From a virus: a stretch of DNA of 20,837 bases. The stretch covers positions 1 to 20,837 of the IMG/VR virus record IMGVR_UViG_3300013297_000172; one strand, 5' to 3'. Positions 709 through 9,267 of this stretch are shown in pieces (position 1 is the stretch's first letter; each line of letters opens with the position of its first letter). Both the position numbers and the translations under genes were made by a program. The notes below the pieces were generated by a model that saw nothing but the letters and a program-made list of their open reading frames with translations, was not told the origin of the DNA and ran no database searches.

Positions 709-1376
709 GTATTGTTCTAATCATCGTCGGTTTGCTCCTTATCATTATCGCTGGCTATGTTCTGCTCACCAGTTACACTCACAAGCCTCAAACAGCGTCT
801 GAAAGAATTAAGACTCTCCAAGATGAAAAATATTCAACTGAAATGGGTAGGCCTGCTGCTGGAAGAGAGAGTAAGGCGGCGTTAGCACGGGCTACTTTAC
901 AGGCCGCTCTAAATGTTGAAGCCGAACAACTCGGGGTGATTGAAGATAGAAAATCTCAAGCTCAGGTTGTTGATGCCGAGCGACAAACCCAGCTAATAGA
1001 CTTTGAGAACCGGCAAAAACTTCTTCTAATCGCCGGTAGTAAGAATCTTGATGTTGGAACTTACCTTGAATTGGAAAGGAAAGCTGAGATGGACCGGCTG
1101 GAATTGCAGAAGCAATGGCAGGAGTTACAGGATGCACTTAAAGCAGGGTTCATCTACGAGCTTCGGGCCCATCAACACCTTAATCTGGTGACTGAGTATA
1201 TCGGCGGTCTTTATACCAGAGCCGAGCAACTCAAAGAAGCAGGTAAGGACAGGGAGTACAATCTAATCGAGGAACACATAGCGTTTATGGAAGGAGACTT
1301 CCGTGGCCGTCAGAGACTACTTCTATCTTCTCAACAAGAAGACCTTCAAGGAAGCGACGAAAATCCCTACGAGTGA
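705..1376 (+). CDS. Membrane-anchored coiled-coil protein
   Basis: 223 residues. Residues 2-23 form one strongly hydrophobic helix (IVLIIVGLLLIIIAGYVLL). The remainder is charged and helical, with long stretches rich in A, E, K, L, Q and R (about 34-200), fitting a cytoplasmic or periplasmic coiled coil. I do not recognise a family. It starts in the ATGA overlap with the lectin-like gene and its end overlaps the ATPase start at 1303 by 74 bases, so the three are surely co-transcribed. The ATPase downstream has no membrane helix, whereas VirD4-type coupling proteins normally do, so this protein could serve as its membrane anchor. That role is inference. Confidence 0.75.
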   Translation: MSIVLIIVGLLLIIIAGYVLLTSYTHKPQTASERIKTLQDEKYSTEMGRPAAGRESKAALARATLQAALNVEAEQLGVIEDRKSQAQVVDAERQTQLIDFENRQKLLLIAGSKNLDVGTYLELERKAEMDRLELQKQWQELQDALKAGFIYELRAHQHLNLVTEYIGGLYTRAEQLKEAGKDREYNLIEEHIAFMEGDFRGRQRLLLSSQQEDLQGSDENPYE

Positions 1377-2868
1377 AGAAATTCTAGATAAGCAAGAGAA
1401 GGGATTTCGGACAAAATACCCGCTGAGGATTTTAGGTGAAGGCAAAACAACGCTCACGATGACCGAAGAGGAGCGACCTCATGCACACCTAATCGGTTCC
1501 ACCCAAGAAGGCAAATCAAAATTCATTGAGCATCTGGTTCGTGAGGATGTGCGTCGAGGTTTTGGAGCTTGTGTTTTAGACCCGACTACCGGAGCCAAGA
1601 CTATCTATGACATCTTGCGCTGGTGCTGCGACAAAAAGGTAAAAAAGGTCTGTCTCATAGACCCACACGCTCGATGGGAATACAACAAAATAGTTGGAAT
1701 AAATCCCTTTCTATACAAAAAAGATGGTCCAAGCGATAAGCTGAAAAAGGCTTCTTTAATCAACATCACAGACACTATCCAAATTCTCTTTAATACGAAA
1801 GACCCGGCCCAGACTTCTTTTATCAATCGGTATGTTGAAGCCGTACTCAATTGTCTCTATAACGCTAGCGCCCCGCTTTCTGATGCTCGTTGTTTTACGA
1901 ATCAGGCTTACGTCAATCAACGCAAAGAAGTGCTCTCCGCCTCAAAACCGACAGACCCGCACCGGATTGACTTAGAAGAAGCGTTTAGAAACGCTAAGCA
2001 GTTTGAGCATCTTCAAACGACCATCAATCGTTTACAGGGTTTCTTCCGAGACCCTCTCAGCGCAATGCTTGGAGTGTCGCAAGGAGTTGATTTTCTACAG
2101 ATGGTAAAAGAGGGCTGGCTCATTCTAGTTAATCTAGACAGCTCCGTTGACCTCGATGTTATGGACGCTCGGCTGTTAGGTACGTTAATTATCAACCAAC
2201 TCTTGCTTGCGATGGACCGGCTGTTCTACTTGAAGAAGAACAAAGCCACTCGATTTTATTTATATGTTGATGAAGCTGGAGAGTATGCCACACGTAAATT
2301 AGCTCGGGCCTTTACTCTGAAAGCAAAGACTGGTCTTCGAGTAACAATAGGTCATCAATATTTCGGCCAGTTCGAGGATAAGTATGTTGTGGACGCCATC
2401 AACGCCCTTACAAAGATGAAAGGAATGTTCAATCTGCCGGGTCGTGAGGATAGGGATAAAGTAACGAAGATGTTCTACGGTGGAGACATTTCAGACCGAC
2501 AGGCCTCATTTGCTAATGCAGACCTTCCCCAGCAACATGCCGTTCTAAAGATACTGAAAGGTGGTCCTCAAAGAGTAAGGATACCAGATGTTCCGCCGGC
2601 TAGGTCGAGTGACGCCGACTTGCGGGAATACATAGCGCGGATTTTTGACCAGCCTTGGTACTACAATCCGCGCGACGTTAAACAAGCTCATGATATTAGA
2701 TACTTACAAACGGATTCTTCACGGACTCCATCTCGAAAAGAACATGACCGGGAGGCAGATAGCGAGACTTCTGTACCCGCAGGATTACGCCGAAGACGCC
2801 AGCAAAACCTATCAACGAGTAATGAAGAACCTCAAAAAGCTGGAGAACGACGGCCTATTAAGGTCTAA
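1303..2868 (+). CDS. VirD4/TraG-like (HerA/FtsK-type) DNA-pumping ATPase
   Basis: 521 residues from GTG, chosen because AAGGAGA sits 5 bases upstream. Walker A is GSTQEGKS (65-72). Walker B is FYLYVDEAGEY with D323-E324. A following GHQYFGQFED motif matches the glutamine-containing sensor region of type IV coupling ATPases. Such proteins bring DNA to, or drive it through, a type IV secretion channel. There is no N-terminal membrane segment, unlike typical VirD4, so it would be soluble or recruited by the neighbouring membrane proteins. The last 60 or so residues are low-complexity, basic and rich in R, S and E, and are encoded out of frame over the start of the next gene; they may be an overprinted tail or the product of a frameshift. 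ATPase family call firm, exact subfamily less so. Confidence 0.85.
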   Translation: MAVRDYFYLLNKKTFKEATKIPTSEEILDKQEKGFRTKYPLRILGEGKTTLTMTEEERPHAHLIGSTQEGKSKFIEHLVREDVRRGFGACVLDPTTGAKTIYDILRWCCDKKVKKVCLIDPHARWEYNKIVGINPFLYKKDGPSDKLKKASLINITDTIQILFNTKDPAQTSFINRYVEAVLNCLYNASAPLSDARCFTNQAYVNQRKEVLSASKPTDPHRIDLEEAFRNAKQFEHLQTTINRLQGFFRDPLSAMLGVSQGVDFLQMVKEGWLILVNLDSSVDLDVMDARLLGTLIINQLLLAMDRLFYLKKNKATRFYLYVDEAGEYATRKLARAFTLKAKTGLRVTIGHQYFGQFEDKYVVDAINALTKMKGMFNLPGREDRDKVTKMFYGGDISDRQASFANADLPQQHAVLKILKGGPQRVRIPDVPPARSSDADLREYIARIFDQPWYYNPRDVKQAHDIRYLQTDSSRTPSRKEHDREADSETSVPAGLRRRRQQNLSTSNEEPQKAGERRPIKV

Positions 2869-3403
2869 GTCCTACGGACTGGCTAAGGAAAAGTTTTGGT
2901 TTCTTGCAAAACATCCAATCGTTTCTGAATTGGAGTACATCCCTCCCAAGAAAGAAGTTCACGCCTTCAAGTATGACCATGAGAAGGATTGCGCCGAGGT
3001 GTTTGTTTCTCTGGCGCTGACTGATTCTTTATTCACCTGGGAAGGTGAAGGTGACCAAAAATCTGGCCTTAGGCACGACCGGAAGTTTAGTGTTGACGAC
3101 CGGGTGTTTTGCCTTGAGGTTGAACGAGGCACCCAAGGTGACGGTAGGCTCAGAGAGAAGCTGGCCCGGTACGTAAAGTATTACGAATCCACCAGGGAAC
3201 CATTCCACGTTCTTTTCACGGTTCAAAATGAGTCAGCCATAGAGTCTTTGGTTTACCTTTTCGGGGAGTTTAAACTTGGCAACCAATACGGTGCCGTTCT
3301 GTTTCAGGATTTCATAAATGACCCTCTAAATGCTCCGATTACCACCCGATTCGATACTCTGCATTTGTCCAAACACCTTTCCAAACAACTTCCAAACGAA
3401 TAG
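2690..3403 (+). CDS. Replication-relaxation family protein
   Basis: 237 residues from the ATG at 2690; a TTG at 2645 would add 15. Residues 1-75 look like a winged helix (ILHGLHLEKNMTGRQIARLL, then KTYQRVMKNLKKLENDGLL). The C-terminal domain carries the family signature VFCLEVERGT followed by a helix with KLARYVKYY and the strand FHVLFTVQNE. Members are found on plasmids, conjugative elements and phages, often beside coupling ATPases, and are thought to bind or process element DNA during mobilisation or replication. The gene begins inside the ATPase gene, with a 179-base out-of-frame overlap. In the overlap this frame encodes the conserved-looking winged helix, so it is the better supported of the two. 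Confidence 0.8.
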   Translation: MILDTYKRILHGLHLEKNMTGRQIARLLYPQDYAEDASKTYQRVMKNLKKLENDGLLRSKSYGLAKEKFWFLAKHPIVSELEYIPPKKEVHAFKYDHEKDCAEVFVSLALTDSLFTWEGEGDQKSGLRHDRKFSVDDRVFCLEVERGTQGDGRLREKLARYVKYYESTREPFHVLFTVQNESAIESLVYLFGEFKLGNQYGAVLFQDFINDPLNAPITTRFDTLHLSKHLSKQLPNE

Positions 3404-6429: not shown

Positions 6430-6497
6430 GTACACTGCAACTGTAAAGTAGCACTCTGTGGATAACCGTCTTTTCTCTCTTAACTAAGCCAAAAGAA

Positions 6498-6662: not shown

Positions 6663-6906
6663 GATTGGAGCGCACCAGTACGATATCGTTTTAACGAAGG
6701 ATGTGTTTGAAGGCGCAACTTGCGGGATTCAGTTACGAAAAGAAGGAAAGTTGGTGGTCAACGCAGACCTTCCAAAGACCCATCAAGGCGCAACGCTTTT
6801 TCATGAAATACTTCACGCACTTAACTCCGAGCTAGACCACACGCTCTTAGATAGTTTGGCCGAACAGCTCTACGAAGTCTTTGAAAGTAATAGTCTACTT
6901 CATTAA
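6640..6906 (+). CDS. HEXXH zinc metallopeptidase (ImmA/SprT-like phage type)
   Basis: 88 residues. The zinc-binding motif HEILH (55-59) is followed by ALNSELDHTLLDSLAEQLYEV, where E75 or a nearby glutamate could be the third ligand. The N-terminal half is beta-rich (KLKIGAHQYDIVLT; GKLVVNADLP), as in small phage-encoded peptidases. ImmA-type peptidases cleave phage or ICE repressors after DNA damage; other small phage members have unknown targets. The divergent HTH gene is a plausible partner. Its 3' end overlaps the convergent membrane-protein gene by 12 bases. Confidence 0.75.
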   Translation: MRIPKKLKIGAHQYDIVLTKDVFEGATCGIQLRKEGKLVVNADLPKTHQGATLFHEILHALNSELDHTLLDSLAEQLYEVFESNSLLH

Positions 6907-7092
6907 GACGTGATAAGCATGCTGAATCAGCAGTATCAGAATTAGCAAATAGACTGCCAGCTCTTTGCACTCCCAAACTAATTCTTTGCCTCTCCTCGCA
7001 ATATGTAGAGCGCAGTCGAAGTAGTAATCGATTTGTGGATGTTTTCTCCGTTCAACGGAGATTAGGGGACGAGATTGAAGTTCAGCAGACAC
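6895..7092 (-). CDS. Small C-terminally anchored membrane protein
   Basis: 65 residues from GTG. GGAAGG ends 7 bases upstream, which sets the start. Residues 1-44 are polar and contain two cysteines (DCALHIARRGKELVWEC). Residues about 45-60 are a hydrophobic helix (ELAVYLLILILLIQHAY), leaving only a few residues at the C-terminus: a tail-anchor layout. No family recognised. It converges with and overlaps the peptidase gene by 12 bases. The leader at 7091-7198 can fold into a pseudoknot covering SD and start codon, which supports the gene being real and translationally controlled. Confidence 0.55.
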   Translation of the reverse strand: MSAELQSRPLISVERRKHPQIDYYFDCALHIARRGKELVWECKELAVYLLILILLIQHAYHVLMK

Positions 7093-7198
7093 GCATACAC
7101 CTTCCGGGCCTGCTTAGTTTCATCTGACGCGGTGTATACGCAAGAGGATTATTGCTTCTGTGCTAATGCACGCGTTTGCAGACCCAAAGCGTCAGATG
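7091..7198 (-). promoter_or_regulatory. Pseudoknot leader over SD and start codon
   Basis: On the minus-strand RNA, CATCTGACGC (7198-7189) pairs perfectly with GCGTCAGATG (7130-7121), 10 bp. Its loop contains a GTGC-ATTA-GCAC hairpin (7171-7160) and, contiguous with the 3' strand, GCGTATACACC (7141-7131). That segment pairs with GGTGTATGCGT (7101-7091): 11 bp with two G.U. The second strand covers the last GG of the SD and the first bases of the GTG start. The two stems cross, so they form a pseudoknot if simultaneous. The G.U pairs would be mismatches in the opposite transcript, pointing to minus-strand RNA. Regulation is inference. Confidence 0.5.
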
Positions 7199-7200
7199 CC

Positions 7201-7255
7201 GGCAATTGCCTTTCAAACCGTCACTACCGCGCACTAATTTATCCGTAATAACGGA
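7201..7255. repeat. Palindrome and small hairpin in intergenic gap
   Basis: GGCAATTGCC (7201-7210) is a perfect palindrome just upstream, on the minus strand, of the pseudoknot leader, and could be an operator. TCCGT-AATA-ACGGA (7242-7255) is a 5-bp hairpin in A/T-rich sequence and may be a weak terminator for the minus-strand gene ending at 7372. The rest of 7199-7371 shows nothing coding. Confidence 0.35.
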
Positions 7256-7371
7256 AAAATCGAGAAAATAGTGACCATCAGGAGCTTAATCCCACTTTTC
7301 TAAAAATGTCAATGAATTTTGATATCAACTTCCACCTATAAATTCTCACTTCCCGGCTGCTTAAATCTAAT

Positions 7372-7566
7372 TCAAGTCTTGGAATCGCTTTGGTCTAAGA
7401 GCTGAGGTGGTTCAGCAGGTAAAGGCTTCCGCCATTCGAACCTAATACGCCTAATGGCCCGAACCCAGATAACTCCGGTTTTTCCGATGCCTTTACCCAG
7501 ACCTTGAAGAATAAGAAGAAGTAGGCTGAAGGTGGAAAGGCCAGCCAAGGCCTCTATGACGGACAT
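7372..7566 (-). CDS. Small N-terminally anchored membrane protein
   Basis: 64 residues from ATG, with AAGGAG 6 bases upstream, an excellent SD. Residues about 5-24 are a hydrophobic helix (EALAGLSTFSLLLLILQGLG), then a glycine-rich turn, a basic segment (RAIRRIRFEWRKPLPAEPP) and a polar tail that should be cytoplasmic. No family recognised; size and charge pattern would fit a holin- or antiholin-like protein, unproven. It is divergent from the small terminase gene, and its leader (7573-7680) holds the most elaborate structured element of the window. Confidence 0.65.
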   Translation of the reverse strand: MSVIEALAGLSTFSLLLLILQGLGKGIGKTGVIWVRAIRRIRFEWRKPLPAEPPQLLDQSDSKT

Positions 7567-7572
7567 AGACCA

Positions 7573-7680
7573 CTCCTTGGGAATCCGCCAATACGGTTTA
7601 AGCGACGAGTGTGTCTAGCGGGGAACCTTTTACAACCGGCCTCTAAGGGCCCTAGACGCGGATTCCTACTCGCTCAAACC
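7573..7680 (-). promoter_or_regulatory. Pseudoknotted structured leader (riboswitch-like)
   Basis: On the minus-strand RNA in order: GGTTTGAGCGA (7680-7670) pairs with TCGCTTAAACC (7605-7595), 11 bp with one G.U. GGAATCCGC (7666-7658) pairs perfectly with GCGGATTCC (7588-7580). GTCTAG (7657-7652) pairs with CTAGAC (7618-7613). GGCC (7651-7648) pairs with GGCC (7641-7638). The second, third and fourth helices abut on their 5' strand without gaps, ideal for stacking. The second crosses the first, making a pseudoknot, and its 3' strand ends 1 base before the SD AAGGAG (7578-7573). The wobble pair is a mismatch in the plus-strand transcript. Alternative: a terminase recognition (pac or cos) site beside the small terminase gene. 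Confidence 0.55.
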
Positions 7681-7767
7681 TGGGCAAACTGAGTTGCTAA
7701 ATAAATTATATTCCCAACCCTTTTTAGAAGACAAGCTTTATTTAAGTCTGAAATCGATTTTTAATGT

Positions 7768-7992
7768 ATGCCCTCAGGCCGAAAATCCCTCAAAGAAGAA
7801 TTACAAATCAAACAACGGTACGCAGACCTCACTGAACCGTATTTCAAAGTTCTCAAGAAGCATTTAGACAGTGGAAACGTGGTGAATGAGAAGTGGGCTG
7901 TCGAACAGCTTACGAAAGCGTATACCAGGATGATTCCGCAGGATGTAAAGACAGACCTGACAGGAGAATTGAGTATTAAGTGGCAGTCCTAA
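7768..7992 (+). CDS. Terminase small subunit (probable)
   Basis: 74 residues, short for the family. A basic N-terminus (MPSGRKSLKEELQIKQRY) precedes helices, including NEKWAVEQLTKAYTRMIP, a pattern often seen in small phage terminase subunits. The strongest evidence is context: its stop codon is immediately followed by the ATG of the large terminase. Small subunits recognise the packaging site and load the large subunit on DNA. No SD seen. The structured region at 7580-7680 just upstream could be its binding site. Confidence 0.6.
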   Translation: MPSGRKSLKEELQIKQRYADLTEPYFKVLKKHLDSGNVVNEKWAVEQLTKAYTRMIPQDVKTDLTGELSIKWQS

Positions 7993-9267
7993 ATGGTCGT
8001 TATCCCTTACTCACCGAGGGAATGGGCCAACCAATTACACTCCACTACTAAACGTTGGATAGTCCTTGTCCTTCACCGTAGAGCAGGGAAGACAGTAGCA
8101 GTCCTCAATCACCTTCAACGCGACGCGCTCAAAACTCCAAACTCTCGCTTCGCTTATATCGCTCCCTTTTACAAACAAGCAAAGAATATCGCTTGGGATT
8201 TACTCAAGCTTTACGCTCGCCCAATACCAGGAATTCAATTCAATGAATCAGAACTCTCAGTCAGATATCCCAATGGCTCTAAGCTCCAACTTTATGGCGC
8301 GGACAATCCAGATTCTCTTCGTGGTATTGCTCTTTGGGGTGTCGCTTTCGATGAATACTCCCAGCAGCCCAGCAACATATTTACTGAAATCATACGTCCT
8401 GCTCTCGCTGACCATTCTGGTTACGCTATATGGATTGGTACTCCTAAGGGCAAGAATGAACTCTACCGCCTCCACCAGACAGGACTAACAGATGAGAAAT
8501 GGCTCTCAATGCTCCTCACAGCCGAAGATACAAACCTAATTCCGCATGCAGAACTCGAGGACGCTAAGAAACTGATGAGTGAGGATGAATACAACCAAGA
8601 ATTCATGTGTTCATTCGAAGCCTCAGTGAAGGGCGCCTACTACGCCACCGAACTGGTAAAGGCCAGGAAAGAGAACCGCATCAAGACAGTTCCTTACGAC
8701 CCTATTCTAAAAGTTCATACAGTTTGGGATTTGGGAGTAGGCCAGAAACTAGCCATTGGGTTTTATCAAGGCACGATGGCCGAAAGGAGAATGGTTGATT
8801 ACTGGGAAGGCGCTAACCATGACGGCATTCCCCAGGCTATCAAAGCACTTGAAAACAAAGAATACATTTATGGCAAGCACTTCCTGCCTCATGACGCCAA
8901 AGCTACCGATATCGCAACAGGCAAGACTCGACTTCAATTAGTCAAAGACCTCAAACCAACATGGACGTTTGAAGTAGTACCGATGATTTCAGTTGATGAC
9001 GGTATTCAGAGAGGCAAGCTTTTCTTCAACAAACTTTGGATAGACGAGCAGAAGTGTCAAACGTTCCTAGATTACATTTCCCAGTACCGCCAAGAGTGGG
9101 ATGACAATAAAGGAATGTTCAAAGAGAAGCCTGAGCATGACTTCACTTCACACGCCGCTGATGTTCACAGATATGCAGCAATCGTTGAAGACCTAATGAC
9201 TAACGAGATGCAAAAGACTTATGTGCAGCCAGCTTGGGAGTCAGAAACTAATTACTTTACTGCTTAG
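7993..9267 (+). CDS. terL: Terminase large subunit
   Basis: 424 residues, usual length for a packaging motor. Walker A is LHRRAGKT (27-34), Walker B is ALWGVAFDEYSQ with D120-E121, and a coupling motif WIGTPKGK follows. The C-terminal RNase H-like nuclease has three acids in the expected places: D246 (HTVWDLGVG), D301 (LPHDAK) and D390 (HAADVHRY). It pumps DNA into the prohead and cuts it, docking on the portal. It begins directly after the small subunit stop. Its last 11 bases overlap the 3' end of an antisense gene, which is unusual inside a virion operon. Confidence 0.95.
   Translation: MVVIPYSPREWANQLHSTTKRWIVLVLHRRAGKTVAVLNHLQRDALKTPNSRFAYIAPFYKQAKNIAWDLLKLYARPIPGIQFNESELSVRYPNGSKLQLYGADNPDSLRGIALWGVAFDEYSQQPSNIFTEIIRPALADHSGYAIWIGTPKGKNELYRLHQTGLTDEKWLSMLLTAEDTNLIPHAELEDAKKLMSEDEYNQEFMCSFEASVKGAYYATELVKARKENRIKTVPYDPILKVHTVWDLGVGQKLAIGFYQGTMAERRMVDYWEGANHDGIPQAIKALENKEYIYGKHFLPHDAKATDIATGKTRLQLVKDLKPTWTFEVVPMISVDDGIQRGKLFFNKLWIDEQKCQTFLDYISQYRQEWDDNKGMFKEKPEHDFTSHAADVHRYAAIVEDLMTNEMQKTYVQPAWESETNYFTA

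What the first reader, a model, noticed from the sequence alone, without database searches (positions are those of the whole stretch)
7573..7680. Pseudoknotted leader abutting the SD of a small membrane-protein gene
Four helices can be read directly: 11 bp (one G.U), 9 bp, 6 bp and 4 bp. Three of them are contiguous along one strand, and the 9-bp helix crosses the 11-bp one. Its last base is 1 nt from AAGGAG. The wobble pair is a mismatch if read from the other strand, so selection seems to act on the minus-strand RNA. I recognise no known riboswitch. Its position next to the small terminase also allows a packaging-site role.
Basis: partly seen in the sequence, partly recalled or inferred. Interest (0 to 1): 0.85.

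Follow-up and report, generated by a model that had tools for sequence, protein, structure and literature searches.

The report
Pseudoknotted leader of a phage membrane-protein gene
A small phage gene for a short membrane protein appears to begin its RNA with a knotted fold that ends one base before the ribosome-binding site, in the way known small-toxin messages control their own translation, but no relative carries the same fold, so this remains a well-formed single example.

Summary
On the minus strand, 7680-7580 can form an 11-bp helix (A, one G.U), a crossing 9-bp helix (B) and nested 6-bp and 4-bp helices (C, D). B, C and D are contiguous on one strand, and B ends 1 nt before AAGGAG, which is 6 nt before the ATG of a 64-aa single-span membrane protein. 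It is the top-scoring pseudoknot in the 20.8-kb virus record; 1 of 305 whole-window shuffles matches it. A sigma-70-like promoter lies just upstream. No Rfam family and no sequence homologue was found, so covariation of this element could not be tested. The wobble argument for the minus strand is weak, because the plus strand gains its own G.U. A packaging site is disfavoured: the relative L002 has a 92% identical TerS, yet its DNA similarity stops at the terS start. New context: the window carries a second tandem minus-strand unit (promoter, helix-bearing leader, 65-aa membrane protein). Its homologues in L002 and L003 sit directly beside terS, so the examined element belongs to an extra cassette. 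Best reading: a cis-acting 5' leader controlling translation of a small membrane protein, working like the pseudoknotted tisB and timP leaders. Family membership is not claimed.

The parts
7705..7734 (-). sigma-70-like promoter TTGTCT-18-TATAAT of unit 1; predicted start near A7698
   Evidence: 10 of 12 matches; the only promoter-like site in 6800-8100, but such sites are expected by chance at about this rate; similar to the L003 promoter, 10/1000 shuffles
7595..7680 (-). helix A, arms 7680-7670 and 7605-7595, 11 bp with one G.U
7580..7666 (-). helix B, arms 7666-7658 and 7588-7580, 9 bp, crosses A; 3' arm ends 1 nt before AAGGAG
7613..7657 (-). helix C, arms 7657-7652 and 7618-7613, 6 bp, contiguous with B
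7638..7651 (-). helix D, arms 7651-7648 and 7641-7638, 4-bp GGCC hairpin, contiguous with C
7683..7694 (-). 5' segment ACUCAGUUUGCC that in the nested MFE pairs with GGCGGAUU (7589-7582) and GAGU (7575-7572, half of the SD), excluding helix B
   Evidence: prediction only
7573..7578 (-). Shine-Dalgarno AAGGAG
7372..7566 (-). unit 1 ORF, 64 aa, one N-terminal hydrophobic span; no family match
7284..7312 (-). promoter-like site of unit 2, TTGACA-17-TTAAGC
   Evidence: similar to L002 and L003 promoters (8 and 16 of 1000 shuffles)
7121..7198 (-). unit 2 leader helix CATCTGACGC / GCGTCAGATG, 10 bp; the core CTGACGC/GCGTC(A or G)G recurs in L002
6895..7092 (-). unit 2 ORF, GTG start, 65 aa, C-terminal hydrophobic span; homologues in L002 and L003
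7768..7992 (+). small terminase gene (TerS), divergent from unit 1
   Evidence: position directly before TerL; 92% identity to L002; TerS name inferred, no family match

Best explanation
The element is the 5' leader of a minus-strand mRNA that starts near 7698 and encodes a 64-aa membrane protein. The leader folds into a two-helix pseudoknot (A crossing B) with a nested hairpin arm (C, D) continuing B, and B docks right against the SD. It most likely sets translation initiation of the membrane protein. In one conformation the pseudoknot forms and the SD is free, or presented to 30S/S1. In a competing nested conformation the 5' end pairs with B's 3' arm and with half of the SD. Shown: the sequence anatomy, the non-chance topology, the promoter-like site, the SD and ORF, and a second comparable unit with homologues. 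Inferred: transcription, folding, the switch, and the direction of control.
For: Topology rarer than chance. Promoter-like site 25 bases upstream of helix A. AAGGAG 6 nt from ATG, with a 64-aa single-span ORF. The minus strand scores better against its shuffles than the plus strand (1/1000 against 70/1000). Sister arrangement in the same window: unit 2 has its own promoter-like site, a 10-bp leader helix and a 65-aa membrane protein. In L002 the unit-2 homologue keeps the helix core CTGACGC/GCGTC(A to G)G, a change that is U-A to U.G only on the minus-strand RNA, and the SD follows it directly. In L003 an 11-bp helix also ends 1 nt before AAGGAG of the homologous gene. Leaders of L003, L004 and L016 fold better than shuffles (z -2.1, -3.6, -5.6). 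A+C+D (-29.8) plus B (-15.1) against the nested MFE (-41.2 kcal/mol) makes pseudoknot and nested states comparable. Precedent: pseudoknots in tisB (PMC7708055) and timP (PMC11228461) leaders are essential for translation of small membrane toxins.
Against: No homologue of this leader or of its 64-aa ORF was found, so there is no covariation evidence. Relatives' leaders do not show a significant pseudoknot, and neither does unit 2 (64/400). Nested folding energy is ordinary. Codon usage does not distinguish the ORF from non-coding frames. The descriptor was chosen post hoc.
Confidence: 0.52

Rival explanations
1. Independent small RNA or ribozyme: the folded RNA itself acts in trans or self-cleaves, and the ORF downstream is incidental. 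The strand order A B C C' A' B' is that of HDV-like ribozymes.
For: Same strand order as the nested double pseudoknot of HDV-like (drz) ribozymes, which occur in phages (PMC10879173). Other TerS-bearing relatives L099 and L102 have a conserved ~200-nt structured element upstream of terS that is not directly followed by an obvious ORF.
Against: No relevant Rfam match even at E up to 10. The segment equivalent to J4/2 is GUAUUG and has no cytosine, although the catalytic C is essential in drz (PMC10879173). P1 is 11 bp and the C helix encloses 33 nt. AAGGAG lies 1 nt away and starts a real-looking ORF. The L099/L102 element does not resemble this one.
Confidence: 0.13
2. DNA site: the interleaved inverted repeats are a terminase packaging site, a replication or single-strand origin, or an operator.
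For: Next to terS; both long helices are also inverted repeats in the DNA with one mismatch each over 11 bp. DnaA-box-like TTATCCACA occurs near terS in L016, L095, L099 and L102.
Against: L002 has a 92% identical TerS, but its DNA similarity to the window stops about 9 bases before the terS start. The only exact DnaA box in the window is 1.1 kb away, and near-matches are no more frequent than chance. Arms lie 64-70 nt apart in crossing order, unusual for a dimer-binding dyad.
Confidence: 0.12
3. Chance complementarity in an ordinary leader; the structure does nothing.
For: Two-helix score reached in 11/165 whole-window shuffles; nested MFE z about -0.6; no conservation.
Against: Three contiguous helices reached in 1/305 whole-window shuffles and 1/1000 in the leader, at a promoter-SD position where relatives also have long helices.
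Confidence: 0.18
4. Plus-strand leader or attenuator of terS.
For: On the plus strand B extends to 11 bp with a G.U and dominates the fold; it lies upstream of terS.
Against: Pseudoknot not significant on the plus strand (70/1000); no plus-strand promoter-like or terminator-like site in 6800-8100; element ends about 90 nt before terS.
Confidence: 0.05

Closest known systems
tisB mRNA standby pseudoknot (type I toxin-antitoxin tisB-istR1, E. coli; PMC7708055)
   Same: Structured 5' leader with a pseudoknot in an mRNA for a very small membrane protein; the pseudoknot is needed for 30S/S1 loading there.
   Different: The tisB pseudoknot is small (9 + 5 bp), about 100 nt upstream of a sequestered RBS, and acts with an antisense RNA and mRNA processing. 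Here 11 + 9 bp abut an SD that is only partly pairable, and no antisense promoter was seen.
timP mRNA pseudoknot (timPR type I toxin-antitoxin; PMC11228461)
   Same: Mutually exclusive leader conformations, one with a pseudoknot (predicted here, shown for timP); small inner-membrane protein.
   Different: The timP SD is buried in a stem-loop and the pseudoknot joins two stem-loops, with covariation and mutant proof. Here nothing is tested experimentally, no TimR-like RNA was found, and no sequence relationship is known.
HDV-like / theta ribozymes of phages (PMC10879173)
   Same: Helix order P1 P2 P3 P3' P1' P2'.
   Different: P1 too long (11 bp), P3 encloses 33 nt, no C in the J4/2 equivalent, no Rfam hit, no tRNA in the window.

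Membership tests
Pseudoknotted translational leader (works like tisB/timP) | Crossing helices in the 5' UTR of the regulated gene, beyond chance | tested here: met
   (post hoc descriptor)
Pseudoknotted translational leader (works like tisB/timP) | Covariation or compensatory mutation supports the pseudoknot | tested here: inconclusive
   no homologue found; relatives lack the same element
Pseudoknotted translational leader (works like tisB/timP) | Pseudoknot changes translation | not testable with these tools
   needs reporter and toeprinting assays
Type I toxin-antitoxin | Small hydrophobic membrane peptide | tested here: met
   64 aa, best 17-residue hydropathy 2.13
Type I toxin-antitoxin | Antisense RNA antitoxin gene | tested here: not met
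   no plus-strand promoter-like site in 6800-8100; no significant trans complementarity in the window; a consensus scan is weak evidence
Type I toxin-antitoxin | Toxicity on expression | not tested
   needs experiment
HDV-like (drz) ribozyme | Catalytic C in J4/2 | tested here: not met
   GUAUUG 7594-7589 has no C; requirement
HDV-like (drz) ribozyme | Match to Rfam HDV-like models | tested here: not met
Any Rfam family | Score at the gathering threshold | tested here: not met
Terminase packaging site | Conserved with its cognate TerS | tested here: not met
   92% identical TerS in L002 without upstream DNA similarity

The most novel reading that the evidence does not exclude
Terminase-proximal phage cassettes made of a phage promoter, a pseudoknot or long-helix leader and a small membrane protein form an unrecognised, fast-diverging group of RNA-controlled membrane peptides, and this leader is a two-state switch of a new RNA class, with the pseudoknot on and SD pairing off, sensing a ligand, protein or sRNA.
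Probability: 0.12. Interest if true: 0.7.

Novelty: new variant of a known kind. Interest (0 to 1): 0.42.

Why it matters
If the leader works as proposed, an uncultured tailed phage controls a small membrane peptide with a pseudoknot placed directly at the SD. That would extend the tisB/timP principle, known from enterobacterial toxin mRNAs, to phage cassettes beside the terminase genes, and it gives short, testable constructs. The recurrence of structured leaders and small membrane proteins at this locus suggests a cargo site worth surveying.

Tried and rejected
Rfam at gathering and permissive thresholds: nothing relevant. DNA and protein searches for the element or its ORF in phages, plasmids and viral contigs: nothing. 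Pseudoknot descriptor on leaders of L002, L003, L004, L016 and L095: not significant or marginal; the L047 hit is an AT repeat. More unit-2 homologues sought by pattern and by profile: none beyond L002 and L003. Codon-usage test of the ORF: uninformative. MAFFT of all leaders: not alignable. HDV-like ribozyme: rejected on the J4/2 cytosine and the P1 and P3-loop sizes.

Full report
Setting. The window is a whole IMG/VR virus record of 20,837 bases. It encodes TerL (Terminase_6N, 3.7e-12), a portal protein (SU10_portal) and a major head protein on the plus strand. The small ORF directly before TerL is taken as TerS by position. The finding lies between terS (7768) and a minus-strand ORF of 64 aa that begins at 7566.

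The observation. The minus-strand sequence reads 5'-GGUUUGAGCGA GUA GGAAUCCGC GUCUAG GGCC CUUAGA GGCC GGUUGUAAAAGGUUCCCCG CUAGAC ACACUCG UCGCUUAAACC GUAUUG GCGGAUUCC C AAGGAG UGGUCU AUG. Helix A (11 bp, one G.U) is crossed by helix B (9 bp); C (6 bp) and D (4 bp) are nested, and B, C and D are contiguous on the 5' side.

Chance. I scored every crossing pair of helices in the window on both strands. This pair is first with 49.5, and the next scores 40.0. On two helices alone, 11 of 165 dinucleotide shuffles of the whole window contain something as good, so the two-helix claim alone is weak. With a third helix contiguous to B, 0 of 65 and 1 of 240 shuffles reach the observed 64.5; if C may lie anywhere inside, 3 of 65 and 19 of 240 do. 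In the 208-nt leader alone, 1 of 1000 shuffles reaches the score on the minus strand, against 70 of 1000 for the plus-strand best. The descriptor was shaped by the element, so these values are optimistic. Nested folding shows nothing unusual (z -0.24; -0.62).

Strand.

Homologues. TerL relatives L002 (90%), L003 (84%), L004 (76%) and L005 (75%) were found, then more distant ones. DNA similarity between the window and L002 begins about 9 bases before terS and none exists upstream, although TerS is 92% identical. No homologue of the element or of its 64-aa ORF was found. Covariation of this element is therefore untested, not absent.

What lies beside it. The window has a second minus-strand unit: promoter-like TTGACA-17-TTAAGC at 7312, a leader with a 10-bp helix CATCTGACGC/GCGTCAGATG, and a GTG-start 65-aa protein MSAELQSRPL... 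with a C-terminal hydrophobic span. L002 has its homologue MSAELQPKPL..., and the start regions align far beyond chance (0/1000 shuffles). L002 keeps the helix core CTGACGC with GCGTCGG in place of GCGTCAG, so U-A becomes U.G on the minus-strand RNA and the pairing is kept; the SD follows the helix directly. L003 has a third relative (28% identity to unit 2), and there an 11-bp helix TCGATGAGTCC/GGACTTATCGA ends one base before AAGGAG, the same spacing as in the finding. L004 has a 41-aa membrane protein behind 10-bp and 9-bp helices in tandem. Leader folding z-scores are -1.9 for unit 2, -2.1 for L003, -3.6 for L004 and -5.6 for L016. In L002 and L003 the unit-2 homologue sits directly beside terS, so unit 1, which carries the finding, is an extra cassette. 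The pseudoknot itself is not shared: no other leader is clearly significant for it.

Mechanism. Forced nested substructures give -29.8 kcal/mol for A+C+D with B's arms free, and -15.1 for the B duplex. Together this is -44.9 before pseudoknot loop penalties, against -41.2 for the best nested fold. In the nested fold the 5' end ACUCAGUUUGCC pairs with GGCGGAUU, which is most of B's 3' arm, and with GAGU, half of the SD. The two states exclude each other and are comparable in energy. The proposed mechanism, inferred and not shown, is that the pseudoknot frees or presents the SD while the nested state partly hides it. In a non-pseudoknot ensemble that includes the start of the ORF, the SD bases are 0.47-0.96 unpaired, so hiding would be partial. 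The opposite sign (pseudoknot as a barrier to 30S) cannot be excluded.

Comparison. Pseudoknots in the 5' UTRs of tisB (PMC7708055) and timP (PMC11228461) are essential for translation of small membrane toxins; in timP the active and inactive forms are mutually exclusive. This leader would work in that manner, but membership in a type I toxin-antitoxin system is not claimed: no antisense promoter was seen and toxicity is untested. The strand order equals that of HDV-like ribozymes, including phage theta ribozymes, but the J4/2 equivalent GUAUUG has no cytosine (requirement: PMC10879173), helix sizes differ and Rfam finds nothing. A packaging site is disfavoured by the L002 comparison.

Verdict. 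A real and unusual arrangement, probably a translational leader of a small membrane-protein cassette. It is a single example without covariation, so interest is moderate.

Noticed in passing
L099:2691-2899 (-) and L102:2336-2538 (-): A ~200-nt structured element upstream of terS is conserved between two phages with related TerS but different TerL. Eight predicted pairs change on both sides, and it contains an H-type pseudoknot with compensatory changes (TTCTTG..CGCCG..CAAGAA..CGGCG against TTCTGC..CGTCG..GCAGAA..CGACG). No Rfam match, no phage or plasmid match. It may be a new RNA and deserves its own study.
   Followed up: partly
window 6895-7312 (-): Second unit: promoter-like site, leader with a 10-bp long-range helix, and a 65-aa membrane protein MSAELQSRPL...; homologues in L002 (TTG at 983) and L003 (TTG at 1483).
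   Followed up: yes
L016:2859-3040 (-), identical in L100 and L101: Exceptionally stable leader (MFE z -5.6): 9-bp helix TGTGAGACG/CGTCTCACA around 81 nt plus a long hairpin, before an ORF MSTFKHLLENL...
   Followed up: partly
upstream of terS in L016, L095, L099, L102: Exact DnaA-box-like TTATCCACA lies near the structured region, possibly a replication origin region; in the window the only exact copy is at 6457-6465.
   Followed up: no
window 1303-2868 and 2645-3403 (+): Overlapping ORFs for a TrwB-like coupling ATPase (PF10412) and a Replic_Relax protein (PF13814) in a tailed-phage record; suggests plasmid-like or integrative functions mixed with phage genes.
   Followed up: no
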